From contig CM067531.1 in the NCBI GenBank assembly GCA_034509925.1, positions 1,930,001 to 1,994,000 on the forward strand: 64,000 nucleotides of DNA, given 5' to 3'. Position numbers and translations under genes: made by a program. Source of the DNA: Hirudinaria manillensis (Eukaryota > Annelida > Clitellata > Hirudinida > Hirudinidae). The notes under the pieces were generated by a model. The model was not told the DNA's origin. It worked only from the letters and a program-made list of their open reading frames with translations, and made no database searches. Each line of letters starts with the position of its first letter. The first letter of the stretch is position 1. This document shows positions 13,726 through 44,349 of this stretch, piece by piece.

Positions 13726-18666
<4,941 letters not shown>

Positions 18667-21345: not shown

Positions 21346-23372
21346 CTGTTATGAGATAACAAAGGAATAATATAATTGAAAATGATTAATATATTTCAGC
21401 ATTATGAATAAATAATGAAATTGATAACAATAAAGCAGGTTTGTAAGACTGGTGGGGCAGACGAACTTGGAAGAGAAGATGGCGGGAAACCGGGCAGACG
21501 TTGCGAGACTTTTGAGAAAATTTCGTCGTGGACAGTCGATGGATGAGCAGGGTCGTGATTTTTATGTCAGTCTCGAAGAAGTATTCTGCCTCACTGCTGC
21601 TGTTGTTGTTGTTGTTGAAGTGGTTGTAATTGGTATTGTCGTTGTTATTCTTGCTGTTGTTGTGAACGTTGTAATCTTCTCTGGTAGGGATTTCGTAGTC
21701 TGCGATAGTAGTGCTGTTGTGGGCCTGTAAGTTTACGATCGAGTTGTTAAAAACGGTGGGATGGCATTTTTATAAGTCAATCGAGGCACAATAAATTCAT
21801 AAACGAGAAACTCCATGACAAGTCTTGATTTTTGGCAGGAGGAGAACATTTTATTTATGTGGTTGGTGACGAAATTTTGGACCAAAGGTTAGTGACTCAA
21901 GGGGAGAAGCTTGCACCCATTGCCCTTGCCGGTTTAGGCCATTGTGACGATAACATAGGATGAGTAACTTGCTTTTGGAGACTCGCCGTTACGTTCAATC
22001 AGATTAAAATTCGGTCAGTGAACCTAATTTATTTCATATTAATTAATTAGTGCCCAAAAAACCCCGAAAACTCTCGTGCGACTTGGTGCAATGACAACTC
22101 TGAACCGAAAGAAAGGTGGAATAAATTATTTCAGATTTTTTTCCACGCAAGTTGATCAAAAAAAAAATTCTACAAAATGAACGAGTGAAGCGTCTATCAT
22201 CGCGAGGAAAAATGGCAGACGCCTTGCCCTGATACGTCTTGCAGATTCAGAAAAAAGATTGCCAGTCCCGATATATGCCTTTTCTTCCCTAGACTGTAAA
22301 TCACTACCCGTGGACGCCCAGGGGAGCTGGAAGGATGGAACGTTGAGAAAACACGGGAGAAAGAATAAATCGTCTGCTGGATTATTTCGATCAATGGACG
22401 GAGATGATCTACGACAAGTGTGGAACTCGAGTGAGGAATGGGTGGAGGAGGAGAATAGCGATGGTGGTGGTGAGGATGATAATGATGACCATGGTGATGG
22501 TGATGATGACGACGACGACGATGGTGATGCTGATGATGATGACGACGATGGTGATGATAAAAAAACAAGATAAGACGATCGGCATAGGTCTCCAGACACT
22601 GGTTTAAAATCCACCTGATGATGCCAAACTCAGATAAAACAAAAAAAGTGGCGGGAAGTGGAAAATAAAGAAAAAAAATTGAGGCATTGAGAAGTTTTTA
22701 TTTTTTGTTTTTACACAAAGTTTCAATAAATTATCACGAAATACGCGAAATTTATTGAAATTTTAGAAAAAACATGGAAAATATTACATAAATTAAGAAA
22801 TAAAATGAATTTAGATAATTTAATTAAGATATTAAATAGATTAATTATTACTTAAGATGACGTCCTAGAAAAATTATTTCTTGGCTTGTAAGAATCAGGT
22901 GATTTAGACAACATTAACTTCCTTTTATTTACACCTCAGTATGTTGTAGCAAATGAAAACTTGGATTAAATTACCACATTCGTCATCTTTATTAATAAGT
23001 TATTAATAAATTTTGATTATATTAAATAAATATAAAAATAATTTGTGAAATAAATACATAATAAAATACAATTTAAAGTCGTTAGCTGAAAGGTGACAGT
23101 TGGCTTTCAAACGTTTACACCAAAAGGTAAAAGGTCACCTGGGGTCAACTTAGTTGTTGTTGTTGTCGTTGTTGGATGCCCTCATTTGTTGAGATTTACT
23201 ACCCGACAACAGGGCAACAGGGGTTAAGCAGGGTTGGTGTTGAAACAACAACAACAACAACAACACATTTTCCGTTTGGGTCTTTGACAGCAACTGAAAT
23301 GATGCCTTTTGAAGTCTTGCGGTAGGTAATGTTTTTTTGGGCGCATTTAATTTGTTACCTAAATTAATAAAC

Positions 23373-23890: not shown

Positions 23891-25247
23891 GCCGCATTGT
23901 CCGATACATTGAGTGTGATGTTGACAGTGACATATTATTAATTAATATTAATATGTTAACAATATCATCCAGTGGTTTAGTTTAGGATTTTTAAAATTTA
24001 AAAAGAAGTTGGAAAATGTATTTACACAGATTGGGACGACATCTTTTCTTACATAATTTGCTTCTCATAACAAAGATTCAGAAGGTGCTGACAGTGGCTG
24101 GGGGAGGCACATACCCTATTCAGCCATACCCTCCCCCTTATGGCTTTACATTGCTTGCAGCTATCCGTAGTCCAAGCACCAGATGCACGAAGCACTGGAG
24201 ACCATTTGTTGTTTATTACGAAATAATTTGACTTTAAATTACCTTTTACTCCACATTTTTATTGGCCATCGAATAAAAATCGTGTCGACAGGTGACCTAT
24301 TTTGCCGGCTAATAAACAATTGCCAACGAGTACATAAAACTTTACATGAAAAACATTTTGATAATAATAACGGTGTAAAATAATTATAATTAATTAATTT
24401 AAAATTATATATATAACAATAACAATTATTATTATTATTATTATTTATTACATTTATTATTATTATTATTATTTTGATCCATCCACTTTTTCCAACTTTT
24501 CACCAATGTCGTCGTCTTCATCACCATTCTCGATATTAATAGCATTTTATGTAATAAAGAAATAAAATAATGATTGAAATAAAATATAATTCCCGCATTC
24601 AATCCTAAAATAAGAACGTTTAAAGGTTTAATATTAAATATTTAATATTAAATTCGATAAATACAAAAAATGTCCGACTTGTTTTGCAAAAATGTGAGAA
24701 TTCAAAACATTTTAAATGTTCTAAACAACCCCGAGGCAGACGACATTTGTTCCGAGCGCGAACTCTGCTTCCCGCCCTCTGATTATATTATGATTATAAT
24801 TACTTAAACTATTACACGATCAATTAGTTTTTCCTCTGTTTGATTAAATTTAAATTTAAAAAACAAATCAAAAAGAAAATGACACATTTAATTCAAAATG
24901 ATTTCAAAAGTTCGAAATTAATAATTTTAATTTATTGGAAAATAGCAAATAAAACTCGAATCGTTTGATTGAAGAGAACATAATTGGTTGATATTACCTG
25001 TACAATCTGTAGCATGGCCCAGGTCATGATGAAGAAGACAGTGCAACAACTTTTAGACGATGATTTTGTCGTCTGCATATTTGAGCGCCAATCTTAATTA
25101 GTCATTCGATCAATCAATCAATTTATTAATTAATTATTTTTTGTATAATATTAATAATAATAATAATATCAATAACAAATCTGCTATTATCACTCGCAGA
25201 GGGCGAGTAATTGTTCGAAATTCTTAGCCGACTGCAGCTTCTCAAAG

Positions 25248-25352
25248 ATGCCAAGTGTGAATGAAGAATGGCGGATGGATCACTGCTCTTTTATATTTGC
25301 TTTAGCACCGTACAATGACGTGCTGATGTACGGCATCATCACAAAAACATCG
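25248..25352 (+). other. 35-codon exon-like block with splice donor (one per array unit)
   Basis: An ATG-led open block of exactly 35 codons, beginning MPSVNEEWRMDHCSFIFALA and ending ...GIITKTS directly before GTAAGA. It recurs in every unit: 28405-28509, 31584-31688, 34696-34800 and 37873-37977, changed only at residue 3 (S to R). It has protein-like composition, unlike the surrounding AT-rich DNA. An in-phase acceptor (ATTTACAG) about 550 bp downstream, near 25881, opens a further frame of about 62 codons to a stop at 26070. A two-exon protein of about 97 residues is therefore possible. In unit 5 a one-base insertion breaks the second part. I recognise no family; it could also be a captured exon fragment. 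Confidence 0.3.
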
Positions 25353-26329
25353 GTAAGAAGGTGATGACAACAATTACTAAAAAGGTTATTTCGCGCTGAC
25401 AAATTTTGAAGCATGATAATCGTCGATAGTCGTCATCATCACCGCTGCCATTATCATCATCGTCGTCGTCGTCATCATCATCAGTCGATTGCAAGAGATT
25501 TAAATGAGTAGAACCAAGGTTCAGATAGGAAGTTGAGGATGAAACCGAACCAATTTTAAATTTTAAAAGATTTGAATGTTTTTTCGAAGAATTCTTCAAA
25601 ATAAATTTGAATAAAATTGGAAACAAAAACAACTTATTCCGTTTACCATTTAATTACGTTCACAATTTAATTTAATATATAATAATAAATTAATTGATTG
25701 ATTGATTGGCTATGCCGACCAATAGGCCCCTCGATGAGGTTCCTCTTACGGCACATCTCCGGTTCAAATCCGTACCGCCACTTAAAACTAAATGCACTTA
25801 TTTAAATTATTTTTATATAATTCAATTAGAAATCTTACTTTAAAAGTATTTGAAATTAAATCTGAAAAATTAAATCATTTACAGAATTTTATTAAATTTG
25901 AAACAACTTCATTCTTATCTTTGGTCCAATTTTTGGCCAAAAGGTCAAGTAATAAAACCGCCAGCCATAATTTCTTAACTCACTCGCAAATACAATTCGC
26001 GAGCTCAACACAACTTATCCACATTATCTGGCAATTAGATATTTTTGCGACCCTGGATCCAGATAATTAATGAATAATTAAAATGATATTGCGAATTATT
26101 TATTTTATTTTATAATTAATTAAATTAAATTAAAAATAATAATTAAATAATAATTTTTTAATTAATTAATATTCCGGGTAATATTTAGAGTCTTTTGTTG
26201 TGAACCTCGACAAATAATTTAATGTACAAAAGCATAACGAGAGTGAGATAGATATTAGACTTCAAGACTCAGACTCAGACTATTAGGCACTGCAAATCTT
26301 CCAGGACATCTTTAGATCAATTACGCTAA

Positions 26330-27595
26330 ATGAACACTTTCAAAAAACCCTCCACAATTAGTTTGACAGGTTATAACATCATGAATTCAAAGTTTGAAAT
26401 CTCTACGGCATTTGAGAAAATCGTAAAATCGAGCGATCCTTTGGAAGAATTTGAAGAGAACGTTGGAAATAACTCTCTGAAAGAATGGCTGGAAAACGGA
26501 TACGGAGAGGTTATTTCTGGTTTCATTAGATCCCCGGAGTGCGAAAGTGATATGTTCGATAGGTGCCTGAATATCATCGATGCAATCATACCACCAGTTC
26601 CAAAGTTCATGGACGGCAGGGTTCATAAAAATATTTTCAACATTTCGTCCTGTATGGACGATATAGAGGCACTCGAGTATTTAATATCCTTAATTATACA
26701 TCCTATTTTAGAGTGTACGTTTAAATCCAAATATGAAATACCAGCCATATTTGAAAAAGATATTTACTCCGATGTCTTTCTGAAAATCGTTTATTATGCC
26801 AATAAACTGACCATAAATGACTGCCTCATAACATCGAAGTTGATCAATATACTCCGTATCATATACTGGAATTTAGAGTTATGGGACTTTGATTCAATTC
26901 TTAGGGCCTTGGCATTACTATCCATTTTGTTCGAAAAAGTACCATCGCTTCAAATGTACCTGACGCCAGGCGTCTACCTCAAAGTGAAAGCGATATTTAC
27001 AATATATGAAGAGATCCAATGCTTTCATGTGGATTGTATACGAAAAATCTTTTATTGTTTTGGACTCGATGAGACGTTTCATATAGAATTTCCATTGTTT
27101 AAAGTAATGCAGGACGTTGACTTCAAAGGACGATGTCTTGTCACGTCTTTGAGTCTTGCATTGAGAATAATAAGTGACAGTAACTTTGATGTCATCCAAT
27201 TCATTTTTAGTGGTCTACTGCAGAAATTTCATTCACTTTTGTGCAAACCTTCTGAGTTTCGTGACCAGTCGTTCGTATTCAAGTCTTTTCTCAGATTGTT
27301 TGTAGTCTTTCAAGATGGCATTGAAAACCGTTGCACGAGAAACGAAGACTTGTTTACGAAATTTGAAGGGATGATTTATAGAGCTAAATATTTCTTCAAC
27401 ATACATACTTGCATCGAGGAAAAAGTTGAAAGTTATCCTTATTCAGTTATTTATGAACGCATTGAAAGTTATACAACTTTAGTGATGGATCTATTGAGCG
27501 TCGTGGTTAAACTGGACCGCACTTGGTACAAATGGTTTTACACTGCAGAAAAGTTTAACATAATTGAAGATGATTACTTCTCTTTTTGGCCTTGA
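26330..27595 (+). CDS. Unknown intronless gene, array unit 1 (421 aa)
   Basis: Intact frame from an ATG that follows an in-frame TAA directly (TAAATG), so the start is well defined if the gene is intronless. There is no signal peptide and no clear membrane span. The protein is mostly alternating amphipathic segments rich in Leu, Ile, Phe and acidic residues, suggesting an alpha-helical solenoid (ARM/HEAT-like). The N-terminal part, with IVKSSDPLEEF followed by WLENGYGEVISGFI, faintly recalls the first ARM repeats of importin-alpha; this is inference from pattern only. No catalytic motif is visible. The C-terminus ends DDYFSFWP. The five copies share flanks, so each may carry its own promoter and polyadenylation region; AATAAA-type signals lie about 450-500 bp downstream. 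I do not recognise the family and assign no function. Confidence 0.75.
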   Translation: MNTFKKPSTISLTGYNIMNSKFEISTAFEKIVKSSDPLEEFEENVGNNSLKEWLENGYGEVISGFIRSPECESDMFDRCLNIIDAIIPPVPKFMDGRVHKNIFNISSCMDDIEALEYLISLIIHPILECTFKSKYEIPAIFEKDIYSDVFLKIVYYANKLTINDCLITSKLINILRIIYWNLELWDFDSILRALALLSILFEKVPSLQMYLTPGVYLKVKAIFTIYEEIQCFHVDCIRKIFYCFGLDETFHIEFPLFKVMQDVDFKGRCLVTSLSLALRIISDSNFDVIQFIFSGLLQKFHSLLCKPSEFRDQSFVFKSFLRLFVVFQDGIENRCTRNEDLFTKFEGMIYRAKYFFNIHTCIEEKVESYPYSVIYERIESYTTLVMDLLSVVVKLDRTWYKWFYTAEKFNIIEDDYFSFWP

Positions 27596-29477
27596 TCTAA
27601 TGAGAATAATATTAAGAATTATTTGAGTATTGGTAATAAATTTTGAAATCGTTTTTCCTAAGCTTCAGCTGGCTATTTTCCCATTTTATTCTGACAATCA
27701 TTGCATATCTAGTGAAGTCACCAAGACTGAGTCATTACAAACATATTCTTAAAATAAATATAACGTAAGATTTATTTGCCAAAAAGAAAAAGAGATGGAG
27801 ATTATAAACAGTTTAGAAACAAAAAGACAGATTTTAACTTTATTTGTTTGTTCATAATTTATCTTAAAAATGAAAACCTTGGAGTCTAGCTTGGGAAAGA
27901 TTCCTCCGCTGATAATGGGAAGAGTTACTCGAATAACCGTGCCAGGCTCTTCGTCTGTTCACCCTGAAATCGGCACTTTTATCTCCATCAAAATCAATAT
28001 TATTATTATTGTTATTATCCATCCACTTTTTCCAACTTTTCACCAATGTCATTCTCGATATTAAATGCATTTTATGTAATAAAGAAATAAAATAATGATT
28101 GAAATAAAATATAATTTTCGCATTCATTCCTAAAATAAGGACGTCTAAACGTTTAATATTAAATATTTAATGATAAATTCGATAAATACAAAAAATGTCC
28201 GACATGTTTTGCAAAAATGTGAGAATTAACAACGATTAGTTTGTCGTCTGCATATTTGGGCGCCAATCTTAATTAGTCATTCGATCAATCAATTTATTAA
28301 TTAATTAATTTTTTATTATTATAATAATAATGATATCAATAACAAATCTGCTATTATCACTCGCAGAGGGCGAGTAATTCTTTGCCGACTGCAGCTTCTC
28401 AAAGATGCCAAGAGTGAATGAAGAATGGCGGATGGATCACTGCTCTTTTATATTTGCTTTAGCACCGTACAATGACGTGCTGATGTACGGCATCATCACA
28501 AAAACATCGGTAAGAAGGTGATGACAACAATTACTAAAAAGGTTATTTCGCGCTGACAAATTTTGAAGCATGATAATCGTCGACAGTCGTCATCATCACC
28601 GCTGCCATTATCATCATCGTCGTCGTCATCATCATCATTCGATTGCAAGAGATTTAAATGAGTAGAACCAAGGTTCAGATAGGAAGTTGAGGATGAAACC
28701 GAACCAATTTTAAATTTTAAAAGATTTGAATGTTTTTTCGAAGAATTCTTCAAAATAAATTTGAATAAAATTGGAAACAAAAACAACTTATTCCGTTTAC
28801 CATTTAATTACGTTCACAATTTAATTTAATATATAATAATAAATTAATTGATTGATTGATTGGCTATGCCGACCAATAGGCCCCTCGATGAGGTTCCTCT
28901 TACGGCACATCTCCGGTTCAAATCCGTACCGCCACTTAAAACTAAATGCACTTATTTAAATTATTTTTATATAATTCAATTAGAAATCTTACTTTAAAAG
29001 TATTTGAAATTAAATCTGAAAAATTAAATCATTTACAGAATTTTATTAAATTTGAAACAACTTCATTCTTATCTTTGGTCCAATTTTTGGCCAAAAGGTC
29101 AAGTAATAAAACCGCCAGCCATAATTTCTTAACTCACTCGCAAATACAATTCGCGAGCTCAACACAACTTATCCACATTATCTGGCAATTAGATATTTTT
29201 GCGACCCTGGATCCAGATAATTAATGAATAATTAAAATGATATTGCGAATTATTTATTTTATTTTATAATTAATTAAATTAAATTAAAAATAATAATTAA
29301 ATAATAATTTTTTAATTAATTAATATTCCGGGTAATATTTAGAGTCTTTTGTTGTGAACCTCGACAAATAATTTAATGTACAAAAGCATAACGAGAGTGA
29401 GATAGATATTAGACTTCAAGACTCAGACTATTAGGCACTGCAAATCTTCCAGGACATCTTTAGATCAATTACGCTAA

Positions 29478-30743
29478 ATGAACACTTTCAAAAAACCCTC
29501 CACAATTAGTTTGACAGGTTATAACATCATGAATTCAAAGTTTGAAATCTCTACGGCATTTGAGAAAATCGTAAAATCGAGCGATCCTTTGGAAGAATTT
29601 GAAGAGAACGTTGGAAATAACTCTCTGAAAGAATGGCTGGAAAACGGATACGGAGAGGTTATTTCTGGTTTCATTAGATCCCCGGAGTGCGAAAGTGATA
29701 TGTTCGATAGGTGCCTGAATATCATCGATGCAATCATACCACCAGTTCCAAAGTTCATGGACGGCAGGGTTCATAAAAATATTTTCAACATTTCGTCCTG
29801 TATGGACGATATAGAGGCACTCGAGTATTTAATATCCTTAATTATACATCCTATTTTAGAGTGTACGTTTAAATCCAAATATGAAATACCAGCCATATTT
29901 GAAAAAGATATTTACTCCGATGTCTTTCTGAAAATCGTTTATTATGCCAATAAACTGACCATAAATGACTGCCTCATAACATCGAAGTTGATCAATATAC
30001 TCCGTATCATATACTGGAATTTAGAGTTATGGGACTTTGATTCAATTCTTAGGGCCTTGGCATTACTATCCATTTTGTTCGAAAAAGTACCATCGCTTCA
30101 AATGTACCTGACGCCAGGCGTCTACCTCAAAGTGAAAGCGATATTTACAATATATGAAGAGATCCAATGCTTTCATGTGGATTGTATACGAAAAATCTTT
30201 TATTGTTTTGGACTCGATGAGACGTTTCATATAGAATTTCCATTGTTTAAAGTAATGCAGGACGTTGACTTCAAAGGACGATGTCTTGTCACGTCTTTGA
30301 GACTTGCATTGAGAATAATAAGTGACAGTAACTTTGATGTCTTCCAATTCATTTTTAGTGGTCTACTGCAGAAATTTCATTCACTTTTGTGCAAACCTTC
30401 TGAGTTTGGTGACCAGTCGTTCGTATTCAAGTCTTTTCTCAGATTGTTTGTAGTCTTTCAAGATGGCATTGAAAACCGTTGCACGAGAAACGAAGACTTG
30501 TTTACGAAATTTGAAGGGATGATTTATAGAGCTAAATATTTCTTCAACATACATACTTGCATCGAGGAAAAAGTTGAAAGTTATCCTTATTCAGTTATTT
30601 ATGAACGCATTGAAAGTTATACAACTTTAGTGATGGATCTATTGAGCGTCGTGGATAAACTGAACCGCACTTGGTACAAATGGTTTTACACTGCAGAAAA
30701 GTTTAACATAATTGAAGATGATTACTTCTCTTTTTGGCCTTGA
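29478..30743 (+). CDS. Unknown intronless gene, array unit 2 (421 aa)
   Basis: Same length and start context as the unit 1 copy, with only about five or six amino-acid differences (for example SLRLAL for SLSLAL, EFGDQ for EFRDQ, DKLNR for VKLDR). It shares with unit 1 the KSKYEIPAIFEKDIYSDVF version of the central segment and lacks the extra Glu-Tyr after RAKY that units 3-5 have. Intact and potentially functional; function unknown. Confidence 0.75.
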   Translation: MNTFKKPSTISLTGYNIMNSKFEISTAFEKIVKSSDPLEEFEENVGNNSLKEWLENGYGEVISGFIRSPECESDMFDRCLNIIDAIIPPVPKFMDGRVHKNIFNISSCMDDIEALEYLISLIIHPILECTFKSKYEIPAIFEKDIYSDVFLKIVYYANKLTINDCLITSKLINILRIIYWNLELWDFDSILRALALLSILFEKVPSLQMYLTPGVYLKVKAIFTIYEEIQCFHVDCIRKIFYCFGLDETFHIEFPLFKVMQDVDFKGRCLVTSLRLALRIISDSNFDVFQFIFSGLLQKFHSLLCKPSEFGDQSFVFKSFLRLFVVFQDGIENRCTRNEDLFTKFEGMIYRAKYFFNIHTCIEEKVESYPYSVIYERIESYTTLVMDLLSVVDKLNRTWYKWFYTAEKFNIIEDDYFSFWP

Positions 30744-32661
30744 TCTAATGAGAATAATATTAAGAATTATTTGAGTATTGGTAATAAATTTTGAAATCGT
30801 TTTTCCTAAGCTTCAGCTGGCTATTTTCCCATTTTATTCTGACAATCATTGCATATCTAGTGAAGTCACCAAGACTGAGTCATTACAAACATATTCTTAA
30901 AATAAATATAACGTAAGATTTATTTGCCAAAAAGAAAAAGAGATGGAGATTATAAACAGTTTAGAAACAAAAAGACAGATTTTAACTTTATTTGTTTTGC
31001 TTTTTATATATATATCTAAAAAGTTCATCATTTATCTTAAAAATGAAAACCTTGGAGTCTAGCTTGGGAAAGATTCCTCCGCTGATAATGGGAAGAGTTA
31101 CTCGAATAACCGTGCCAGGCTCTTCGTCTGTTCACCCTGAAATCGGCACTTTTATCTCCATCAAAATCAATATTATTATTATTGTTATTATCCATCCACT
31201 TTTTCCAACTTTTCACCAATGTCATCGTCATTCTCGATATTAAATGCATTTTATGTAATAAAGAAATAAAATAATGATTGAAATAAAATATAATTTTCGC
31301 ATTCATTCCTAAAATAAGGACGTCTAAACGTTTAATATTAAATATTTAATGATAAATTCGATAAATACAAAAAATGTCCGACATGTTTTGCAAAAATGTG
31401 AGAATTAACAACGATTAGTTTGTCGTCTGCATATTTGAGCGCCAATCTTAATTAGTCATTCGATCAATCAATTTATTAATTAATTAATTTTTTATTATTA
31501 TAATAATAATGATATCAATAACAAATCTGCTATTATCACTCGCAGAGGGCGAGTAATTCTTTGCCGACTGAAGCTTCTCAAAGATGCCAAGAGTGAATGA
31601 AGAATGGCGGATGGATCACTGCTCTTTTATATTTGCTTTAGCACCGTACAATGACGTGCTGATGTACGGCATCATCACAAAAACATCGGTAAGAAGGTGA
31701 TGACAACAATTACTAAAAAGGTTATTTCGCGCTGACAAATTTTGAAGCATGATAATCGTCGATAGTCGTCATCATCACCGCTGCCATTATCATCATCGTC
31801 GTCGTCATCATCATCAGTCGATTGCAAGAGATTTAAATGAGTAGAACCAAGGTTCAGATAGGAAGTTGAGGATGAAACCGAACCAATTTTAAATTTCAAA
31901 AGATTTGAATGTTTTTTCGAAGAATTCTTCAAAATAAATTTGAATAAAATTGGAAACAAAAACAACTTATTCCGTTTACCATTTAATTACGTTCACAATT
32001 TAATTTAATATATAATAATAAATTAATTGATTGATTGATTGGCTATGCCGACCAATAGGCCCCTCGATGAGGTTCCTCTTACGGCACATCTCCGGTTCAA
32101 ATCCGTACCGCCACTTAAAACTAAATGCACTTATTTAAATTATTTTTATATAATTCAATTAGAAATCTTACTTTAAAAGTATTTGAAATTAAATCTGAAA
32201 AATTAAATCATTTACAGAATTTTATTAAATTTGAAACAACTTCATTCTTATCTTTGGTCCAATTTTTGGCCAAAAGGTCAAGTAATAAAACCGCCAGCCA
32301 TAATTTCTTAACTCACTCGCAAATACAATTCGCGAGCTCAACACAACTTATCCACATTATCTGGCAATTAGATATTTTTGCGACCCTATATCCAGATAAT
32401 TAATAAATAATTAAAATGATATTGCGAATTAATTATTTTATTTTATAATTCATTAAATTAAATTAAAAATAATAATTAAATAATAATTTTTTAATTAATT
32501 AATATTCCGGGTACTATTTAGAATCTTTTGTTGTGAAACTCGACAAATAATTTAATGTAGAAAAGCAGAGCGAGATTGAGAGAGATATAAGACTTCAAGA
32601 CTCAGACAATTAGGCACTTCTACGCTAACTGATCACTTTCTAACAACACTCCACAATTAGT

Positions 32662-33861
32662 TTGACAAATTCAAAGTTTGAAATCTCTACGGCATTTGAC
32701 AAAATCGTAAAATCGAGCGATCCTTTGGAAGAATTTGAAAAGAACGTTGGAAATAACTCTCTGAAAGAATGGCTGGAAAACGGATACGGAGAGGTTATTT
32801 CTGGTTTCATTAGATCCCCGGAGTGCGAAATTGATATGTTCGATAGGTGCCTGAATATCATCGATGCAATCATACCACCAGTTCCAAAGTTCATGGACGG
32901 CAGGGTTCATAAAAATATTTTCAACATTTCGTCCTGTATGGACGATATAGAGGCACTCGAGTTTTTAATATCCCTAATTATATATCCTATTATAAAGAGG
33001 ATGCCAGGCGATTTCATATTGGAAAAACAAATTTACTCCGATGTCCTTCTGAAAATCGTTTATTATGCCAATAAACTGACCATAAATGACTGCCTCATAA
33101 CATCGACGTTGATCTATGTTATCGACTTGAATTTAGAGTTATGGGACTTTGATTTAATTGTTAGGGCCTTGGCATTACTATCCATTTTGTTCGAAAAAGT
33201 ACCATCGCTTCAAATGTCCCTGACGCCAGGCGTCTACCTCAAAGTGAAAGCGATATTTACAATATATGAAGAGATCCAATGCTTTCATGTGGATTGTATA
33301 CGAAAAATCTTTTATTGTTTTGGACTCGATGAGACGTTTCATATAGAATTTCCATTGTTTAAAGTAATGCAGGACGTTGACTTCAAAGGACGATGTCTTG
33401 TCACGTCTTTTAGACTTGCATTGAGAATAATAAGTGACAGTAACTTTGATGAATTCCAATTCATTTTTAGTGGTCTACTGCAGAAATTTCATTCACTTTT
33501 GTGCAAACCTTCTGAGTTTGGTGACCAGTCGTTCGTAATCAAGTCTTTTCTCAGATTGTTTGTAGTCTTTCAAGATGGCATTGAAAACCGTTGCACGAGA
33601 AACGAAGACTTGTTTACGAAATTTGAAGGGATGATTTATAGAGCTAAATATGAATATTTCTTCAACATACATACTTGCATCGAGGAAAAAGTTGAAAGTT
33701 ATCCTTATTCAGTTATTTATGAACGCATTGAAAGTTATACAACTTTAGTGATGGATCTATTGAGCGTCGTGGTTAAACTGGACCGCACTTGGTACAAATG
33801 GTTTTACACTGCAGAAAAGTTTAACATAATTGAAGATGATTACTTCTCTTTTTGGCCTTGA
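32662..33861 (+). pseudogene. Unknown gene, array unit 3, start codon lost (about 399 codons)
   Basis: The frame is open to the normal stop, but the region of the usual start is changed. The ATG becomes CTGATC, and the second Met codon is removed by a small deletion (TTTGACAAATTCAAAG), so no ATG remains before the conserved body. The first in-frame ATG is deep inside the protein (DMFDR). It has the RMPGDFILEKQIYSDVL version of the central segment, a variant of that in unit 4, plus in-frame Glu-Tyr after RAKY. Its promoter-proximal region also differs from units 1, 2 and 4. Probably non-functional unless it uses a non-AUG start or an upstream exon. Confidence 0.65.
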
Positions 33862-35778
33862 TCTAATGAGAATAATATTAAGAATTATTTGAGTATTGGT
33901 AATAAATTTTGAAATCGTTTTTCCTAAGCTTCAGCTGGCTATTTTCCCATTTTATTCTGACAATCATTGCATATCTAGTGAAGTCACCAAGACTGAGTCA
34001 TTACAAACATATTCTTAAAATAAATATAACGTAAGATTTATTTGCCAAAAAGAAAAAGAGATGGAGATTATAAACAGTTTAGAAACAAAAAGACAGATTT
34101 TAACTTTATTTGTTTTGCTTTTTATATATATATCTAAAAAGTTCATCATTTATCTTAAAAATGAAAACCTTGGAGTCTAGCTTGGGAAAGATTCCTCCGC
34201 TGATAATGGGAAGAGTTACTCGAATAACCGTGCCAGGCTCTTCGTCCGTTCACCCTGAAATCGGCACTTTTATCTCCATCAAAATCAATATTATTATTAT
34301 TGTTATTATCCATCCACTTTTTCCAACTTTTCACCAATGTCATTCTCGATATTAAATGCATTTTATGTAATAAAGAAATAAAATAATGATTGAAATAAAA
34401 TATAATTTTCGCATTCATTCCTAAAATAAGGACGTCTAAACGTTTAATATTAAATATTTAATGATAAATTCGATAAATACAAAAAATGTCCGACATGTTT
34501 TGCAAAAATGTGAGAATTAACAACGATTAGTTTGTCGTCTGCATATTTGAGCGCCAATCTTAATTAGTCATTCGATCAATCAATTTATTAATTAATTAAT
34601 TTTTTATTATTATAATAATAATGATATCAATAACAAATCTGCTATTATCACTCGCAGAGGGCGAGTAATTCTTTGCCGACTGCAGCTTCTCAAAGATGCC
34701 AAGAGTGAATGAAGAATGGCGGATGGATCACTGCTCTTTTATATTTGCTTTAGCACCGTACAATGACGTGCTGATGTACGGCATCATCACAAAAACATCG
34801 GTAAGAAGATGATGACAACAATTACTAAAAAGGTTATTTCGCGCTGACAAATTTTGAAGCATGATAATCGTCGATAGTCGTCATCATCACCGCTGCCATT
34901 ATCATCATCGTCGTCGTCATCATCATCATCAGTCGATTGCAAGAGATTTAAATGAGTAGAACCAAGGTTCAGATAGGAAGTTGAGGATGAAACCGAACCA
35001 ATTTTAAATTTTAATAGATTTTAATGATTTTTCGAAGAATTCTTCAAAATTAATTTGAATAAAATTGGAAACAAAAACAACTTATTCCGTTTACCATTTA
35101 ATTACGTTCACAATTTAATTTAATATATAATAATAAATTAATTGATTGATTGATTGATTGATTGGCTATGCCGACCAATAGGCCCCTCGATGCGGTTCCT
35201 CTTACGGCCCATCTACGGTTCAAATCCGTACCGCCACTTAAAACTAAATGCACTTATTTAAATTATTTTATATAATTCAATTAAAAATCTTACTTTAAAA
35301 GTATTTGAAATTAAATCTGAAAAATTAAATCATTTCCAGAATTTTATTAAATTTGAAACAACTTCATTCTTATCTTTGGTCCAATTTTTGGCCAAAAGGC
35401 CAAGTAATAAAACCGCCAGCCATAATTTCTTAACTCACTCGCAAATACAATTCGCGAGCTCAACACAACTTATCCACATTATCTGGCAATTAGATATTTT
35501 TGCGACCCTATATCCAGATAATTAATGAATAATTAAAATGATATTGCGAATTATTTATTTTATTTTATAATTAATTAAATTAAATTAAAAATAATAATTA
35601 AATAATAATTTTTTAATTAATTAATATTCCGGGTACTATTTAGAGTCTTTTGTTGTGAACCTCGACAAATAATTTAATGTACAAAAGCATAACGAGAGTG
35701 AGATAGATATTAGACTTCAAGACTCAGACTATTAGGCACTGCAAATCTTCCAGGACATCTTTAGATCAATTACGCTAA

Positions 35779-37038
35779 ATGAACACTTTCAAAAAACCCT
35801 CCACAATTAGTTTGACAGGTTATCACATCATGAATTCAAAGTTTGAAATCTCTACGGCATTTGACAAAATCGTAAAATCGAGCGATCCTTTGGAAGAATT
35901 TGAAAAGAACGTTGGAAATAACTCTCTGAAAGAATGGCTGGAAAACGGATACGGAGAGGTTATTTCTGGTTTCATTGGATCCACGGAATGCGAAATTGAT
36001 ATGTTCGATAGGTGCCTGAATATCATCGATGCAATCATACCACCAGTTCCAAAGTTCATGGACGGCAGGGTTCATAAAAATATTTTCAACATTTCGTCCT
36101 GTATGGACGATATAGAGGCACTCGAGTATTTAATATCCCTAATTATATATCCTATTTTAGAGAGGATGCCAGGCGAATTCATATCGGAAAAAGAAATTTA
36201 CTCCGATGTCCTTCTGAAAATCGTTTATTATGCCAATAAACTGACCATAAATGACTGCCTCATAACATCGACGTTGATCTATGTTTTCGACTCGAATTTA
36301 CAGTTATGGGACTTTGATTTAATTCTTATGGCCTTGGCATTACTATCCATTTTGTTCGAAAAAGTACCATCGCTTCAAATGTCCCTGACGCCAGGCGTCT
36401 ACCTCAAAGTGAAAGCGATATTTACAATATATGAAGAGATCCAATGCTTTCATGTGGATTGTATACGAAAAATCTTTTATTGTTTTGGACTCGATGAGAC
36501 GTTTCATATAGAATTTCCATTGTTTAAAGTAATGCAGGACGTTGACTTCAAAGGACGATGTCTTGTCACGTCTTTTAGACTTGCATTGAGAATAATAAGT
36601 GACAGTAACTTTGATGAATTCCAATTCATTTTTAGTGGTCTACTGCAGAAATTTCATTCACTTTTGTGCAAACCTTCTGAGTTTGGTGACCAGTCGTTCG
36701 TAATCAAGTCTTTTCTCAGATTGTTTGTAGTCTTTCAAGATGGCATTGAAAACCGTTGCACGAGAAACGAAGACTTGTTTACGAATTTTCATAGGATGAT
36801 TTACAGAGCTAAATATGAATATTTCTCCGACTTACATACTTACCAACTACATACAATCGAGGAAAAAGTTGAAAGTTATCCTTATTCAGTTATTTATGAA
36901 CGCATTGAAAGTTATACAACTTTAGTGATGGATCTATTGAGCGTCATGGATAAACTGAACCGCACTTGGTACAAATGGTTTTACACTGCAGAAAAGTTTA
37001 ACATAATTGAAGATGATTACTTCTCTTTTTGGCCTTGA
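35779..37038 (+). CDS. Unknown intronless gene, array unit 4 (419 aa)
   Basis: Intact frame with the same TAAATG start context as units 1 and 2. It carries the RMPGEFISEKEIYSDVL central segment (a net shortening in whole codons) and a private in-frame rearrangement near the C-terminus (YFSDLHTYQLHTIEEKVE). All length changes relative to units 1 and 2 are multiples of three. Function unknown; alpha-helical character as in unit 1. Confidence 0.75.
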   Translation: MNTFKKPSTISLTGYHIMNSKFEISTAFDKIVKSSDPLEEFEKNVGNNSLKEWLENGYGEVISGFIGSTECEIDMFDRCLNIIDAIIPPVPKFMDGRVHKNIFNISSCMDDIEALEYLISLIIYPILERMPGEFISEKEIYSDVLLKIVYYANKLTINDCLITSTLIYVFDSNLQLWDFDLILMALALLSILFEKVPSLQMSLTPGVYLKVKAIFTIYEEIQCFHVDCIRKIFYCFGLDETFHIEFPLFKVMQDVDFKGRCLVTSFRLALRIISDSNFDEFQFIFSGLLQKFHSLLCKPSEFGDQSFVIKSFLRLFVVFQDGIENRCTRNEDLFTNFHRMIYRAKYEYFSDLHTYQLHTIEEKVESYPYSVIYERIESYTTLVMDLLSVMDKLNRTWYKWFYTAEKFNIIEDDYFSFWP

Positions 37039-38784
37039 TCTAATGAGAATAATATTAAGAATTATTTGAGTATTGGTAATAAATTTTGAAATCGTTTTTC
37101 CTAAGCTTCAGCTGGCTATTTTCCCATTTTATTCTGACAATCATTGCATATCTAGTGAAGTCACCAAGACTGAGTCATTACAAACATATTCTTAAAATAA
37201 ATATAACGTAAGATTTATTTGCCAAAAAGAAAAAGAGATGGAGATTATAAACAGTTTAGAAACAAAAAGACAGATTTTAACTTTATTTGTTTTGCTTTTT
37301 ATATATATATCTAAAAAGTTCATCATTTATCTTAAAAATGAAAACCTTGGAGTCTAGCTTGGGAAAGATTCCTCCGCTGATAATGGGAAGAGTTACTCGA
37401 ATAACCGTGCCAGGCTCTTCGTCCGTTCACCCTGAAATCGGCACTTTTATCTCCATCAAAATCAATATTATTATTATTGTTATTATCCATCCACTTTTTC
37501 CAACTTTTCACCAATGTCATTCTCGATATTAAATGCATTTTATGTAATAAAGAAATAAAATAATGATTGAAATAAAATATAATTTTCGCATTCATTCCTA
37601 AAATAAGGACGTCTAAACGTTTAATATTAAATATTTAATGATAAATTCGATAAATACAAAAAATGTCCGACATGTTTTGCAAAAATGTGAGAATTAACAA
37701 CGATTAGTTTGTCGTCTGCATATTTGAGCGCCAATCTTAATTAGTCATTCGATCAATCAATTTATTAATTAATTAATTTTTTATTATTATAATAATAATG
37801 ATATCAATAACAAATCTGCTATTATCACTCGCAGAGGGCGAGTAATTCTTTGCCGACTGCAGCTTCTCAAAGATGCCAAGAGTGAATGAAGAATGGCGGA
37901 TGGATCACTGCTCTTTTATATTTGCTTTAGCACCGTACAATGACGTGCTGATGTACGGCATCATCACAAAAACATCGGTAAGAAGGTGATGACAACAATT
38001 ACTAAAAAGGTTATTTCGCGCTGACAAATTTTGAAGCATGATAATCGTCGATAGTCGTCATCATCACCGCTGCCATTATCATCATCGTCGTCGTCATCAT
38101 CATCATCAGTCGATTGCAAGAGATTTAAATGAGTAGAACCAAGGTTCAGATAGGAAGTTGAGGATGAAACCGAACCAATTTTAAATTTTAATAGATTTTA
38201 ATGATTTTTCGAAGAATTCTTCAAAATTAATTTGAATGAAATTGGAAACAAAAACATCTTATTCCGTTTACCATTTAATTCCGTTCACGATTTAATTTAA
38301 TATATAATAATAATAATAATAAATTAATTGATTGATTGATTGGCTATGCCGACCAATAGGGCCCTCGATGCGGTTCCTTTTACGGCCCATATACGGTTCA
38401 AATCCGCCACTTAAATCTAAATGCACTTATTTAAATTATTTTTATATAATTCAATTAGAAATCTTACTTTAAAAGTATTTGAAATTAAATCTGAAAAATA
38501 AATCATTTACAGAATTTTATTAAATTTGAAACAACTTCATTCGTTATCTTTGGTCCAATTTTTGGCCAAAAGGTCAATTAATAAAACCGCCAGCCATAAT
38601 TTCTTAACTCACTCGCAAATACAATTCGCGTGCTCAACACAACTTATCCACATTAGCTGGCAATTAGATATTTTTACGACCCTGGATCCAGATAATTAAT
38701 GAATAATTAAAGTGATATTGCGAATTAATTATTATAATAATAATATAAGAATAATTTGACAAAATCGTAAAATCGAGCGATCCT

Positions 38785-39846
38785 TTGGAAGAATTTGAAA
38801 GGAACGTTGGAAATAACTCTCTGAAAAAATGGCTGGAAAACGGATACGGAGAGGTTATTTCTGGTTTCATTGGATCCCTGTGGCACAAAAGTGATATGTT
38901 CGATAGGTGCCTGAATATCATCGATGCAATCATACCACCAGTTCCAAAGTTCATGGACGGCAGGGTTCATAAAAATATTTTCAACATTTCGTCCTGTATG
39001 GACGATATAGAGGCACTCGAGTATTTAATATCCTTAATTATACATCCTATTTTAGAGTGTACGTTTAAATCCAAATATGAAATACCAGCCATATTTGAAA
39101 AAGATATTTACTCCGATGTCCTTCTGAAAATCGTTTATTATGCCAATAAACTGACCATAAATGACTGCTGCATAACATCGAAGTTGATCGATGTTATAGA
39201 CTCGAATTTAGGGTTAAGGCACTTTATTTCATTTCTTAGAGCCTTGGCATTACTATCCATTTTGTTCGAAAAAGTACCATCGCTTCAAATGTACCTGACG
39301 CCAAACATCTATCTCAAAGTGAAAGCGATATTTACAATATTTGAAGAGAATGAATGCTTTCATGTGGATTATATACGAAAAATCTTTTATTTTGGACTCG
39401 ATGAGACGTTTCATATAGAATTTCCATTGTTTAAAGCAATGCAGGACGTTGACTTCAAAGGACGATGTCTTGTCACGTCTTTGAGTCTTGCATTGAGAAT
39501 AATAAGTGACAGTAACTTTGATGTCATCCAATTCATTTTTAGTGGTCTTCTGCAGAAATTTCATTCACTTTTGTGCAAACCTTCTGAGTTTGGTGACCAG
39601 TCGTTCGTAATCGAGTCTTTTCTCGGATTGTTTATAGTCTTTCAAGATGGCATTGACATGTTTTCGAAATTTAGACGGATGATTTTTAGAGCTAAATATG
39701 AATATTTCTTCATCTTACCTACTTGCATCGAGGATAAAGTTGAAAGTTATCCTTATTCAGTTATTAATGAACGCATTGAAAGTTATTCAACTTTATTGAT
39801 AGATCTACTGAAGGTTTTTGCGAGAATTGAATGGCATTTTATGTAA
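38785..39846 (+). pseudogene. Unknown gene, array unit 5, truncated at both ends (about 353 codons)
   Basis: The most diverged copy. The promoter-proximal part and the first 30 or so codons are replaced by AT-rich sequence, so the frame has no ATG at the usual place. At the 3' end the frame leaves the common sequence after IDLLKVFARIEW and stops within the GCATTTTATG segment that normally lies about 450 bp downstream, which indicates a deletion. Inside, the frame stays open, including a deletion that removes about ten codons (NRCTRNED region). It shares the KSKYEIPAIFEKDIYSDV segment with units 1 and 2 but the Glu-Tyr insertion with units 3 and 4. Likely a decayed edge copy. Confidence 0.7.
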
Positions 39847-40001
39847 TAAAGAAATAAAATAATGATTGAAATAAAAAAATTTTTCGCATTCATTCCTAAA
39901 ATAAAGACGTCTAAAGGTTTAATATTAAATATTTAATGATAAATTCGATAAATACAAAAAATGTCCGACATGTTTTGCAAAAATGTGAGAATTAACAACG
40001 A

Positions 40002-40209
40002 TTGCCTTGATGCTGAATTTGCCATCAGAGGCTCAGCACTTACATGGCTTAAATCCTACCTTAGCTGCAGGAAGCAATTTGTCAAACTCGGCGATAGTTC
40101 CTCCGACCTTGTCACCATTAACGTTGGTGTTCCTCAGGGCTCGGTTCTTGGACCTATCCTCTTCACGGCCTATACCTCTCCAGTAGCTCACGCGTTCGGC
40201 GCTATATAA
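40002..40209 (+). mobile_element. LINE reverse-transcriptase fragment
   Basis: About 68 codons of a non-LTR retrotransposon RT, recognisable by LTWLKSYLSCRKQFVKL and GVPQGSVLGPILF, which precede the catalytic YxDD block in Jockey/CR1-type RTs. The catalytic block itself is missing: the frame stops after SPVAHAFGAI and runs into a (TTA)n repeat. The left edge joins the end of array unit 5 without any gap. Confidence 0.88.
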
Positions 40210-40214: not shown

Positions 40215-40294
<80 letters not shown>

Positions 40295-40365
40295 ATATCA
40301 TATCATATGATATCATATCATATCATATCATATCATATCATATATTATATTATATTATATTATGT
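40214..40365. repeat. (TTA)n then (CATAT)n compound microsatellite
   Basis: About 75 bp of TTA units followed by ATCAT/TATAT pentanucleotides. It occupies the left edge of duplication copy B, matching the pentanucleotide satellite at the left edge of copy A. Confidence 0.95.
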
Positions 40366-40730
40366 TATTACTGCTGTTATTGTTATGCGATGGAAGTGCA
40401 TAATATAAGAATAGTGACAGGTGAACGCGAGAAAATTTAGGGATTAAACTTTGAAAACAATTACAGCTTAAAATGATTTTTTTTTCTTATTTTCTGCGAC
40501 AATGTTTTTACAATCTTTCAATTAGGTTCATTATTAGGTTAAATTGCTTTTATGATATTTATAATTCATTTTATTTAAACATTATTTGTAATAATAATAA
40601 TTATCATTATTAATATTATAATATTAAATATTAATAATATAAAAATTATTATGCCCTTTTCAAATAAATTAATTGATGATGATGATGATGGTTATTATTA
40701 TTATTATTACCACCGCTATTGTTATTATTA

Positions 40731-41480
40731 TACACATTTTTCTTTCTTCTTCTCGGTCTCACAGCCGGTGATGGATGAATGCTGAGCACTACCAGTGCTC
40801 TCAGCGATTCATCCAAGTACTTTCCGAAGAATGTGGGCAGTGCCCAGTAAGGAGATCTTCTGAATCTCCGAAGTCTTTGGTCGTCCTGGTATCAACTCTA
40901 CATACTTTGTAAAGTCTTTTCTTAGCGTTCCGAGCGCTCCTACAATTACCGGAACGACTTTAGACTTCACATTCCACATCCGGTTGATTTCAATCTCCAG
41001 GTCCTTGTATTTGCTAATTTTTTCAGCTTCTTTGAGCGCGATGTTCTTATCATCCGGGACTGAAACATCGATTAGCAGGCAAGACTTGGATCTCCTGTCA
41101 TGGATGACAATGTCAGGACTGTTGGCCAATATTTTCCTGTCCGTGATAATTGCATAGTCCCATAGAATGGTGCAATCTTTTATATTCGTCACACTTTGGG
41201 GCGTGTGCTCGTACCATTTCTTTGGAACTTCCCATCCTAGCTCACGGCATACAACCCAGTGGATGTAACTGGCCACCTTATTATGTCGGTGCAAATATTC
41301 AGTTGCTGCTAACACAGTGCAACCCGACGTTATGTGGCTTATCGTTTCTTGGGCCTTGCCACAGATCCTGCAATTGCCATCTATCTTCTGCTTCAATATC
41401 ATGCGTTGATGGTAACGTGTGTTTAGTGTCTGGTCTTGAGCTGCCATGATTAAACTTTCAGTTTTTTTTTAATGTTCTTT
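40731..41480 (-). mobile_element. 5'-truncated R4/Dong-like non-LTR retrotransposon
   Basis: The minus strand encodes about 212 residues (41447 down to 40809) matching the end of the single ORF of R2-superfamily, R4-clade elements. It has a CCHC-type knuckle (CRICGKAQETISHITSGC), then a PD-(D/E)xK restriction-like endonuclease region (SPDIVIHDRRSKSCLLIDVS, VPDDKN), the EKISKYKDLEIEI helix, and a conserved VVPVIVGALG / LLGTAHILRKVL tail. The reverse transcriptase is missing. The short 3' part ends in GTATAATAATAAC. The insert interrupts a TAA/TTA microsatellite that is continuous at the matching place in copy A (15835-15870), so it arrived after the duplication. Confidence 0.9.
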
Positions 41481-41593
41481 GTTATTATTATTATTAATGT
41501 TATTATTATTATTACTTACTTGTGCTAACTAATTATTGCATATTAATTGATTAATCAAAATATTAAGTGACTATTTTATTGAATATCGTCCAG

Positions 41594-44349
41594 ATAGCGG
41601 CTCTTCTGTCTGACGTCGTGGGTCCGTGTACGGTGGAACAATTCTCCCTGAACCTCACTGAGGTCAAAACCTTTGGGGTAGGGGTTGGACCATTCTTTAA
41701 CCAACAGTCAATGCAGTGTGAGCCAATAAAAGTTTTTGTTTTAAGTTTTATTATAATTATTTTCGATTGTTATAAAACGATTTTCTAAAAATTAGGTTTT
41801 AGGAACCTGGTAAGAACGAATTCAAAAAAATAATGATATCATTTAAAGCGACTTTGGTTACCAAAGTTACAGTGAAATTACAAAATATTACCGTAAATTT
41901 ACAGCTTACGTTACAAATTACCAAGAATACGCGGCTCCTGTTGATTTTTGGTTGAACATCACTGAAAAGGCGAAACCTCCAAAAAGAGGTTTGATTGAAT
42001 TCATTACGATTGAATCTGATTGAATGTTTTTATAGATCATCATTTCTTATCGAATTTTAAATGTTTTCGTTTTATATATTTCCCATTTTTAATGTTTTAT
42101 TGAATAAATAATAATATATGTATTTAAAGTTATTTAATTAAAATTAATTACTTAAAAACAGTCGACCGTCCGCTGTACGTCGAAATAAAGGAGAATATTT
42201 CTTGTGGAGCCAATGAAACTCAGAAATGTTTCTGTAACATCGATGACGGAATAATAAAAGGTGATTTTCCCAATTTAACAAAAAAAAAACAGTATTTATT
42301 CTTTTAAAAATCCAAATAACTCTTAAATGCTTGAATTAATTCATTCGTAATTCACATTACGAACCAAACCAACCACCAGCATGCACCTCAGAAAGCGATT
42401 GTGCAGCCATACCAAAACCAGCACCAAAATGCGGAAGTTTCTGCCAGTATGGTTCGTGTCTGGAAGTGTCTTACGGATTCTTGTGTCAGTGCAGGGAGAA
42501 TTTTTATGGCCAGTACTGCCAAGATTACTTGTCACCTTGTAGGTAAGGCGCCCCCCAAAAGTTCCAAATTTATTCCGCTTATTAAACATAAAATACACAA
42601 TTAATTAATTATGTAATTTAACGAAAATTCAATCAATTAAGTAATTATTACTAAACCGTTTCCGTGATAATTATTCATTTAAATTAAACAATTATTTAAA
42701 AAATTAGAACTTAACTCGAACTTACAAGGTGACCAAATCTTTCAGATTTCCTGATCTGTGCGAAATCAACGGAGTATGCACCGGCGACCCGGCCAGGGGG
42801 GGTCAATTCAGGTGCAACTGCAGCTCAGACTACGAGGGCGACTTCTGCGAAAATCTGAAACCCACCACGGTCACCACACCCCCACCGAAAAACGTCACGG
42901 GTTGGTTACATTTATATTTATATTGGTTATATTTATATTTGTTTATTTAGATTACTTCCGATATATTTTCTGTACTGCTGTACTGCTTCGGTTATATTTA
43001 TTTATATTAATTATGCTGTACTTCTGTGAAATATTTTGAATTGGACATTTTCTCAATCTATCTCGACGCATTAATTATACCCTTCCAACAGATTACAGGG
43101 CAGATTACATAATTCTGTTCATTTTGAATATTCTAATTCCTTTATCTAAGACGCACATAAAAAATTTAAAAACAATTTTCCCCATTTTTTTCGAACATCC
43201 AGTGATACTGACGATATACCGTTCAGTCACTCCGGTACCGTTCGACGCTACGAAGTCCATCATACTCGGGTCGGTCTTCGGCGGTCTTGCCCTTCTCTTG
43301 ATCATCGTAGGCATCATCCTCTGTGCCGTGTGCTACATCAGAAGGAGAAAGGTCCTGAGACACGATTATATCTACAAGAGCGGTTCCAAGTCCACCACGG
43401 GAGTCCAAAGTACCATCACCTCTCTGGCAGGAGCCTCGACCATAGGCAGAGTTTCTTCCAGGCTCAGTCAGCTCTTTGGCCACAGACGCTCTGGGGAATG
43501 GTATGTCTTTATGTCTTAAGGGTATGTCTTATCATGTAGCCAATCATGTTGCCAATAGCACCAATTAGCGCCTTAAATTGCATAGGAGGTTATTGTTATT
43601 CATACCATTACTAAAATTATTATTATTATTATTGTTATCATGATGATAATCAGATATTTACCGGTTATTGCACCGTCAACGACTTCACTGGACAGATTCC
43701 CAAGCGTTCCGAATAGATTCTCTGCCTCTTTGTCAGCATTGGATATGCAAAACGTTAGACACGAAGAGACTATTTATCGCAACGAGGTTGGATTTCATTC
43801 ATTTCTCAGTACTTGTTTTCCACAATCACGAGAATAAATCGAGCCTTAAAAATACGAGTCACTTGTTTGAAATCTTCATGACTTTGAAAGAAATTTGTTT
43901 ATTTTGTTACAAAGCTTATGATTTCACGATTCTGCCATCAGGTAATACAAGACAACAGGCAGATACTAAAAAACTGGAAGTCCTACTTGGACGACTTGGT
44001 GAACAAGCAGATACTGGAAAAGGCTGTCATGATCAACACCTCCACAAAGGAGTCAGTTAATATGGAGAAGTGGATCATGGATTGGAACGAACTATCGACT
44101 CTGGAGAACGACTTCGGTCGAGATATGGAGACGACCGTCCAGGGCGACGAGTTCTACCTGAGGGCTTCGGAAGGCGACGTCATGACTGGAAAAGAATTCT
44201 TTCCGTCCGACAGCGTGCCGAAGTTCGTCTGCATGGGTCGAACGAAGAAATACCTCGTCGTTGGAATTGGAAAAGCCCATGACGGACTGGAGGATTGCAG
44301 TGGGGAGATCAAGTATATCGTCAAACACATCAAAGCGGAGGGGTTTTAG
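41594..44349 (+). pseudogene. VWA/EGF gene, 5'-truncated duplicate (copy B)
   Basis: Exons corresponding to 4-11 of the complete gene: 41594-41715, 41849-41988, 42162-42260, 42380-42542, 42746-42900, 43203-43500, 43696-43786, 43942-44349. All lengths equal those of copy A. The signal peptide, Thr-rich stalk and first half of the VWA-like domain (exons 1-3) are missing, so no secreted start is encoded. The last codon of exon 9 has changed from GG|A to TG|A across the splice junction (GAATG|GTATGT at 43500), so normal splicing creates a premature stop before exons 10 and 11. The EGF modules and membrane span remain readable. Best called a truncated pseudogene, although individual exons are undamaged. 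Confidence 0.88.

What the first reader, a model, noticed from the sequence alone, without database searches (positions are those of the whole stretch)
24479..40001. Five-copy tandem amplification of an unrecognised intronless 421-codon gene
Seen directly: five direct units of about 3.15 kb, three with an intact frame of 419-421 codons (26330, 29478, 35779). Every other confirmed gene in the window is intron-rich, so an intronless multi-copy gene stands out. I recognise no family, catalytic motif or mobile-element domain in it. Local amplification of an orphan gene is typical of lineage-specific families under dosage or diversifying selection, but that is inference.
Basis: partly seen in the sequence, partly recalled or inferred. 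Interest (0 to 1): 0.78.

Follow-up and report, generated by a model that had tools for sequence, protein, structure and literature searches.

The report
Leech ubiquitin-ligase halves lacking catalytic domain
The five-copy gene array is not an orphan: it encodes the non-catalytic half of a large leech family of ubiquitin ligases related to TRIP12, cut free from the catalytic half and showing the excess of amino-acid changes expected of genes in an evolutionary arms race.

Summary
The array is real: five head-to-tail units of about 3.15 kb, three with intact 419-421-codon frames, two damaged. The gene is not an orphan. In the same genome (assembly statistics match the buffalo leech Hirudinaria manillensis) it has about 60 intronless relatives. 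In 31 the same region is the N-terminal half of an 812-867-codon frame; HECT ubiquitin-ligase domains, closest to TRIP12, fill the C-half of those read. The window protein is that N-half, predicted as an ARM-type helical solenoid, and ends just before HECT; no HECT remnant lies downstream. In the N-half tree the 28 HECT-less genes sampled fall in one clade in which no sampled member keeps the catalytic cysteine; HECT was lost more than once inside it. The window copies show dN/dS of 2.2-2.4. Their genes are also more diverged than their near-upstream DNA in 37 of 45 pairs, usually 1.2-1.5 times. In 9 of 9 pairs of cysteine-bearing relatives the HECT half is less diverged at silent sites than the N-half. 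Best reading: stand-alone, fast-evolving binding modules (decoys or adaptors) of a lineage-specific E3 family, probably in genetic conflict. Kinship is firm, selection well supported; expression, targets and mechanism are inferred.

The parts
25057..27595 (+). unit 1 (spacer + gene), with a partial upstream piece at 24458-24708
   Evidence: blastn against unit 2, 98.3% over 2539 bases
26330..27595 (+). copy 1: intact 421-aa HECT-less TRIP12-type N-half (the start may be the second Met, 26381, where L014, L016 and L017 begin)
27596..30743 (+). unit 2
29478..30743 (+). copy 2: intact 421 aa; 5 amino-acid-changing and 0 silent differences from copy 1
30744..33861 (+). unit 3
   Evidence: blastn 94.8% to unit 2
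32836..33861 (+). copy 3: start region damaged, 341-aa ATG frame left
33862..37038 (+). unit 4
   Evidence: blastn 95.6% to unit 2
35779..37038 (+). copy 4: intact 419 aa
37039..39811 (+). unit 5 (37039-38736 and 38754-39811), with a terminal piece of the repeat at 39826-40003
38896..39846 (+). copy 5: broken copy, 316-aa ATG frame left; its coding part is nearer to the C6:2.79 Mb copies than to its array neighbours
15342..21444 (+). left copy of a ~6-kb segmental duplication flanking the array
   Evidence: 90-91% to 40216-47016
40216..47016 (+). right copy of that flanking duplication

Best explanation
The array encodes catalytically empty members of an intronless TRIP12-type HECT E3 family that is greatly expanded in this leech. 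Each intact copy makes only the N-terminal ARM/helical half, which in TRIP12 lies on the acceptor side of the enzyme, and stops before the HECT domain. Shown: kinship, absence of HECT, one clade in which every sampled member lacks the catalytic cysteine with repeated loss of HECT, preserved frames, and an excess of amino-acid-changing substitutions. Inferred: the stand-alone halves work as binding modules, decoys or adaptors that capture a fast-changing target (a parasite, viral, mobile-element or rival-protein ligand), either sequestering it alone or competing with, or presenting it to, the still-active E3 relatives; the changes track that target. My odds for each layer: kinship and truncation 0.95; positive selection 0.78 (lowered from 0.85 after the control); binding module in genetic conflict 0.5.
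Confidence: 0.58

Rival explanations
1. Dominant-negative or buffering regulators: the stand-alone halves bind ubiquitin chains or the same substrates as active family members and tune those E3s, without any outside antagonist.
For: TRIP12's ARM domain carries tandem ubiquitin-binding sites for K48-linked chains (PMC12440805, passages); relatives with an intact cysteine coexist in the genome (9 of 14 fetched complete-HECT members).
Against: A regulator of conserved partners predicts purifying selection; the window clade has dN/dS over 2, and in cysteine-bearing relatives the N-half is the more diverged part.
Confidence: 0.2
2. Decaying pseudogene array: recent tandem copies of a dead E3 that are not yet eroded; dN>dS is an artefact of gene conversion, silent-site constraint, alignment or mutation bias.
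For: 3 of 11 window-clade copies are broken; the whole sampled clade lacks the catalytic cysteine; expression unknown; flanks are mosaic and 8 of 45 pairs have a gene less diverged than its near-upstream DNA.
Against: 8 of 11 frames intact although a neutral copy with 42 substitutions stays stop-free in 6.6% of simulations; coding gaps mostly keep frame; dN/dS above 1 on gap-free codons and against a simulated neutral spectrum; deeper HECT-less genes (L027, L030, L034, L046 and others) also keep open frames.
Confidence: 0.15
3. Reproductive or within-genome conflict protein (sperm-egg, seminal, selfish element or its suppressor) rather than immunity.
For: Tandem arrays with dN>dS are known for such proteins in general (recalled).
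Against: No tissue data; secretion signals were not tested.
Confidence: 0.15
4. Mobile-element or virus-derived gene.
For: Intronless, dispersed, near a reverse-transcriptase-like fragment at 40809-41447.
Against: No relatives in the viral contig collection (94 pattern matches, none a relative), no PHROG in 16 of 16 members, no inverted repeat of 100 bases or more in 22000-42500; dispersed copies carry 0.4-1.5 kb of the upstream DNA, so they moved as DNA segments; long relatives are HECT E3s.
Confidence: 0.03

Closest known systems
TRIP12 / UFD4-type HECT E3 ligases
   Same: ARM-type and helical half followed, in full-length leech relatives, by a HECT domain whose best PDB match is TRIP12; the window model aligns with TRIP12 residues about 642/690-1509/1590, before HECT.
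   Different: The window protein has no HECT domain and no catalytic cysteine. The leech relatives are shorter (812-867 codons; human TRIP12 has its active cysteine at 2007), intronless and multi-copy, where the 2010 census lists TRIP12 as 0 or 1 gene in each of seven animals (PMC2837046, passages).
HvARM1 of barley
   Same: Partial duplicate of the U-box/ARM-repeat E3 HvPUB15, named for its armadillo repeats; contributes to powdery mildew resistance (PMC6092874, abstract and outline).
   Different: U-box and not HECT, plant, one gene; here dozens of copies, repeated loss, tandem arrays. It is what this may work like, not kin.
HERC5/HERC6 of mammals
   Same: HECT-family genes; HERC6 under strong recurrent positive selection, with chimeric duplicates, read as antiviral (PMC7775381, abstract and outline).
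   Different: HECT domain kept, few genes; a different HECT subfamily (recalled).
Caenorhabditis F-box expansions
   Same: Lineage-specific expansion of ubiquitin-system adaptors (PMC8665587, abstract start in search listings; positive selection there is recalled).
   Different: Adaptors of cullin ligases; here the two halves of a single-chain HECT enzyme come apart.

Membership tests
TRIP12/UFD4-type HECT E3 ligases (as an enzyme) | C-terminal HECT domain | tested here: not met
   0 Pfam families in copies 1, 3, 4 and 5 (copy 2 not scanned); no tblastn HECT remnant in the window. Met in long relatives.
TRIP12/UFD4-type HECT E3 ligases (as an enzyme) | catalytic cysteine of the C-lobe | tested here: not met
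   Column absent in the five window copies; cysteine present in 9 of 14 fetched complete-HECT members.
TRIP12/UFD4-type family (by descent) | collinear sequence kinship with the N-half of family members | tested here: met
   24-44% identity over most of the length to frames of 690-867 codons, best E 2.6e-72; trees.
TRIP12/UFD4-type family (by descent) | ARM/helical scaffold fold of TRIP12 | tested here: met
TRIP12/UFD4-type family (by descent) | tandem ubiquitin-binding sites on the ARM domain | not testable with these tools
   14-16% identity in the structural alignment does not allow residue-level transfer.
transposon or virus gene | polymerase, transposase, integrase or capsid domain; long terminal inverted repeats; viral relatives | tested here: not met

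The most novel reading that the evidence does not exclude
Leeches have evolved a variable/constant ubiquitin-ligase repertoire: about 30 intronless single-chain E3-like genes in which the recognition half diversifies while the HECT half is kept similar by conversion, plus a large derived clade of free recognition halves under positive selection, together acting as an innate recognition system in which binding and catalysis have been uncoupled.
Probability: 0.22. Interest if true: 0.88.

Novelty: new variant of a known kind. Interest (0 to 1): 0.64.

Why it matters
HECT ligases are usually few: 9 to 28 genes in each of seven animals in the 2010 census (PMC2837046, passages) and 22 in a mussel (PMC11353290, abstract start in listings). 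This leech has 71 HECT matches of at least 200 profile positions in single frames of 650 codons or more (counted) and a clade that repeatedly shed the catalytic half while the rest kept its frame and, in the window copies, changed its amino acids faster than expected. If the halves are expressed, they are a natural experiment on what the recognition side of a HECT E3 does alone, and a candidate for an unrecognised invertebrate defence or conflict system. It also shows how a gene that looks like an orphan in database searches can be identified through longer relatives in its own genome.

Tried and rejected
Direct identification of the 421 aa failed in Pfam, PDB sequences and the protein database; it succeeded only through the longer paralogues. 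Viral and phage origin: nothing. A tRNA or tRNA-derived repeat in the spacer: ARAGORN found no tRNA in the window. A claim that genes are 3-6 times more diverged than their spacers was dropped: it held for chosen pairs (copies 2/4, 4/5) but the control over the pairs with enough upstream DNA shows mostly 1.2-1.5 fold, 3-5.5 fold in some, and the reverse in 8 of 45. Clustering of the selected sites along the protein: P 0.054, not used. The parental intron-bearing TRIP12 gene was not looked at because the own-genome search with L059 did not complete, so retroposition as the origin of the intronless family is inference. Foldseek itself ranked designed and importin ARM proteins beside TRIP12, none below E 0.001. 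The alignment of HECT-less members found one further protein, P0011 (705 aa, HECT cut before the C-lobe), in an unnamed ENA source; no HECT-less relative outside this genome was found.
Full report
OBSERVATION. The array is as described. Five direct units lie between about 24.46 and 40.00 kb. Taking a unit as spacer plus gene, unit 2 (27596-30743) is 94.8-98.3% identical to units 1, 3 and 4; unit 5 keeps two blocks (37039-38736, 38754-39811) and the repeat ends with a piece at 39826-40003. Intact ATG frames are 26330-27595 (421 aa), 29478-30743 (421) and 35779-37038 (419); copies 3 and 5 are damaged. L014, L016 and L017 begin at the second Met of the window frame, so the true start may be 26381 in copy 1.

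WHICH GENOME. The window lies in G000 contig C6 at 1930001-1994000; G000 has 148,429,096 bases in 23 contigs, with C1 of 14,755,599 and C6 of 11,463,318 bases. The HiFi assembly of the buffalo leech Hirudinaria manillensis is described as 22 scaffolds, 148.59 Mb, N50 11.46 Mb, longest 14.76 Mb, 13 chromosomes (PMC10671345, passages). I take the species as H. manillensis by this match; it is an inference.

WHAT IS MISSING. The catalytic cysteine column is present in 9 of 14 fetched complete-HECT members and lost in 5: L021, L022 and L035, where the surrounding motif is rewritten, and L047 and L053, where it is Asn. Six members (688-724 aa) end before the C-lobe. Twenty-eight have no HECT. tblastn with the HECT halves of the 14 complete members finds no remnant in the window, in any of 23 HECT-less loci (with 1.5-2 kb of downstream DNA each) or in L049; only L048 has a broken HECT after its frame. 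Seventeen further full-length relatives were not fetched, so their cysteine is unknown.

HISTORY. On a tree of the N-half (54 rows: 49 of this genome, 5 from unnamed ENA records) the 37 genes without HECT, with cut HECT, or with the rewritten site (L021, L022, L035) form one clade, support 99/97, next to L038 and the ENA proteins P0001-P0003, which keep the cysteine (cysteine of P0001-P0005 checked). A thinned tree of 47 rows with P0011 gives the same clade, 98/96; holding the HECT-less genes together as one clade is rejected, p-AU 0.001, so HECT went more than once. Outside the clade the cysteine was lost in L047 and L053, and P0011, with its HECT cut before the C-lobe, sits beside P0001-P0003. 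Several long branches meet, so the inner order is uncertain; the programme warns of this.

SELECTION. The window clade has 11 copies at four places (C6 at 1.96, 2.67 and 2.79 Mb; C11). Pairwise dN exceeds dS in 51 of 55 comparisons (two of them with no silent change at all), for example copy 1 against L014 dN 0.093, dS 0.035, ratio 2.62 (1.48-5.17), and L014 against L016 2.96 (1.66-9.98); the bootstrap interval (100 draws) lies wholly above 1 in 18 of the 49 pairs given one; pairs with L017 or L019 are near 1. A first run that kept columns near gaps gave 2.28 and a larger site signal; the gap-free run replaces it. Simulated neutral change with the spacers' own spectrum gives 0.89-0.93, and 5 of 6 tested pairs have fewer silent changes than simulated at P 0.042 or less, the sixth, with L017, P 0.26.

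SPACER CONTROL. Chosen array pairs look striking: copies 2 and 4 differ by 1.1% upstream, 4.3% in the gene and 1.3% downstream, copies 4 and 5 by 1.9% upstream and 11.6% in the gene. The fuller control is weaker. Of 55 pairs 45 have enough of the 350 bases upstream; the gene is more diverged than these in 37 of 45, mostly 1.2-1.5 fold, 3.3-5.5 fold in eight pairs, with upstream DNA identical but genes 8% apart for L011 against L017 and L019. It is less diverged in 8 of 45: copy 3 with copies 1, 2 and 4, L011 with copies 1-4, and L014 with L015. The flanks are thus a mosaic, and silent divergence is often below upstream divergence, which would raise dN/dS.

OTHER GROUPS. The C4 array of eight HECT-less genes (seven sampled) has dN/dS 0.98 overall, although site models again find a class above 1; L024/L026 are at 0.50; the cut-HECT trio L025, L031, L032 is at 1.70 (p 0.024); N-halves of cysteine-bearing groups are at 0.53-0.77 (0.90 for the L052, L055, L057 subset), their HECT halves at 0.59 and 1.05, the latter on a very short tree. 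Strong diversification is therefore a property of the window clade, with weaker signs elsewhere.

NOT DECAY. Eight of 11 window-clade copies keep the frame. A neutral copy with 42 substitutions, about half the distance between typical members, stays free of stops in 6.6% of simulations, with 100 in 0.6%. Gaps between seven intact copies are multiples of three in 84 of 92 pair counts, against 8 of 18 in spacers of three array pairs; these counts are not independent.

A VARIABLE AND A CONSTANT HALF. Silent divergence differs between the two halves. In 9 of 9 pairs of cysteine-bearing members the HECT half is less diverged: L052 and L055 have N-half dS 0.109 and 381 identical HECT codons; L050 and L054 0.408 against 0.053; L050 and L058 0.475 against 0.028; L051 and L052 0.584 against 0.229; the smallest contrast is L052 and L057, 0.135 against 0.088. 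Over all 15 pairs examined it holds in 11; the four exceptions (L028/L029, L021/L022, L025/L032, L031/L032) all lie in the cysteine-less clade. In L052/L055 and L050/L054 the change lies near residues 402-463, close to where the HECT-less genes end; in L054/L058 the pattern is patchier, with a near-identical stretch inside the N-half. Because silent sites are affected, conversion or exchange of the HECT half, and not only selection, is implied. The pairs are not independent. This is the boldest observation and the least expected.

MECHANISM. TRIP12 is described as a pincer: the ARM domain holds the acceptor ubiquitin and a K48-linked neighbour, the HECT domain sits opposite (PMC12440805, passages). 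A free ARM/helical half could bind but not transfer ubiquitin. With dN/dS over 2 the most likely role is a binding module that follows a changing partner, as a decoy or as an adaptor. The barley gene HvARM1, a partial copy of a U-box/ARM E3 that contributes to mildew resistance, is a working precedent for the principle, not a relative (PMC6092874, abstract). Expression, partners and ubiquitin binding are untested.

SCALE AND LITERATURE. PF00632 gives 140 matches in this genome; 71 of them span at least 200 of 306 profile positions in single frames of 650 codons or more, a few with a stop counted inside the match (counted). One of a second class, L059, is a 949-codon intronless HECT gene. The 2010 census gives 9-28 HECT genes for seven animals and TRIP12 as 0-1 (PMC2837046, passages). 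Searches that could have shown a leech HECT expansion listed no paper on it, but the listings are capped at 15-25 titles; the words HECT and ubiquitin do not occur in the main text held of PMC10087013 and PMC10494388, nor ubiquitin in that of PMC10671345. The library lacks most subscription journals, so it may be described elsewhere.

VERDICT. A real array of HECT-less paralogues of a large leech TRIP12-type E3 family: a new variant of a known kind, with kinship firm, selection well supported in the window clade by codon tests and more weakly by the spacer control, and function inferred.

Noticed in passing
L050, L051, L052, L054, L055, L057, L058 (full-length relatives): HECT half less diverged at silent sites than the N-half in 9 of 9 pairs of cysteine-bearing members, identical in one pair; suggests conversion of the catalytic half.
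   Followed up: partly
whole genome, L059: 71 long HECT frames without introns, including a second class of about 920-1016 codons that the window protein does not detect, and one 2332-codon frame on C5.
   Followed up: partly
window 15342-21444 and 40216-47016: A 6-kb direct segmental duplication, 90-91% identical, flanks the array on both sides.
   Followed up: no
window 40809-41447 (-): Fragment resembling the C-terminal part of a reverse transcriptase (zf-RVT, below the cut-off, E 0.0019), inside the right duplication.
   Followed up: no
window 11472-11636 (-): U1 snRNA gene, 140 bits.
   Followed up: no
window 48758-53413 (-) and about 60353-60832 (+): Frames that read by eye like separase and an Otp-type homeobox; labels recalled, not tested.
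   Followed up: no
C4:10673219-10738039 (L037, L039-L045): A second array of eight HECT-less genes of 435-447 aa, with decayed fragments of the N-half downstream of some.
   Followed up: partly
L011, L017, L019 (C6 near 2.67 Mb): The 350 bases upstream are identical between L011 and L017 or L019 although their genes differ by 8%: genes or flanks have been swapped between copies.
   Followed up: no
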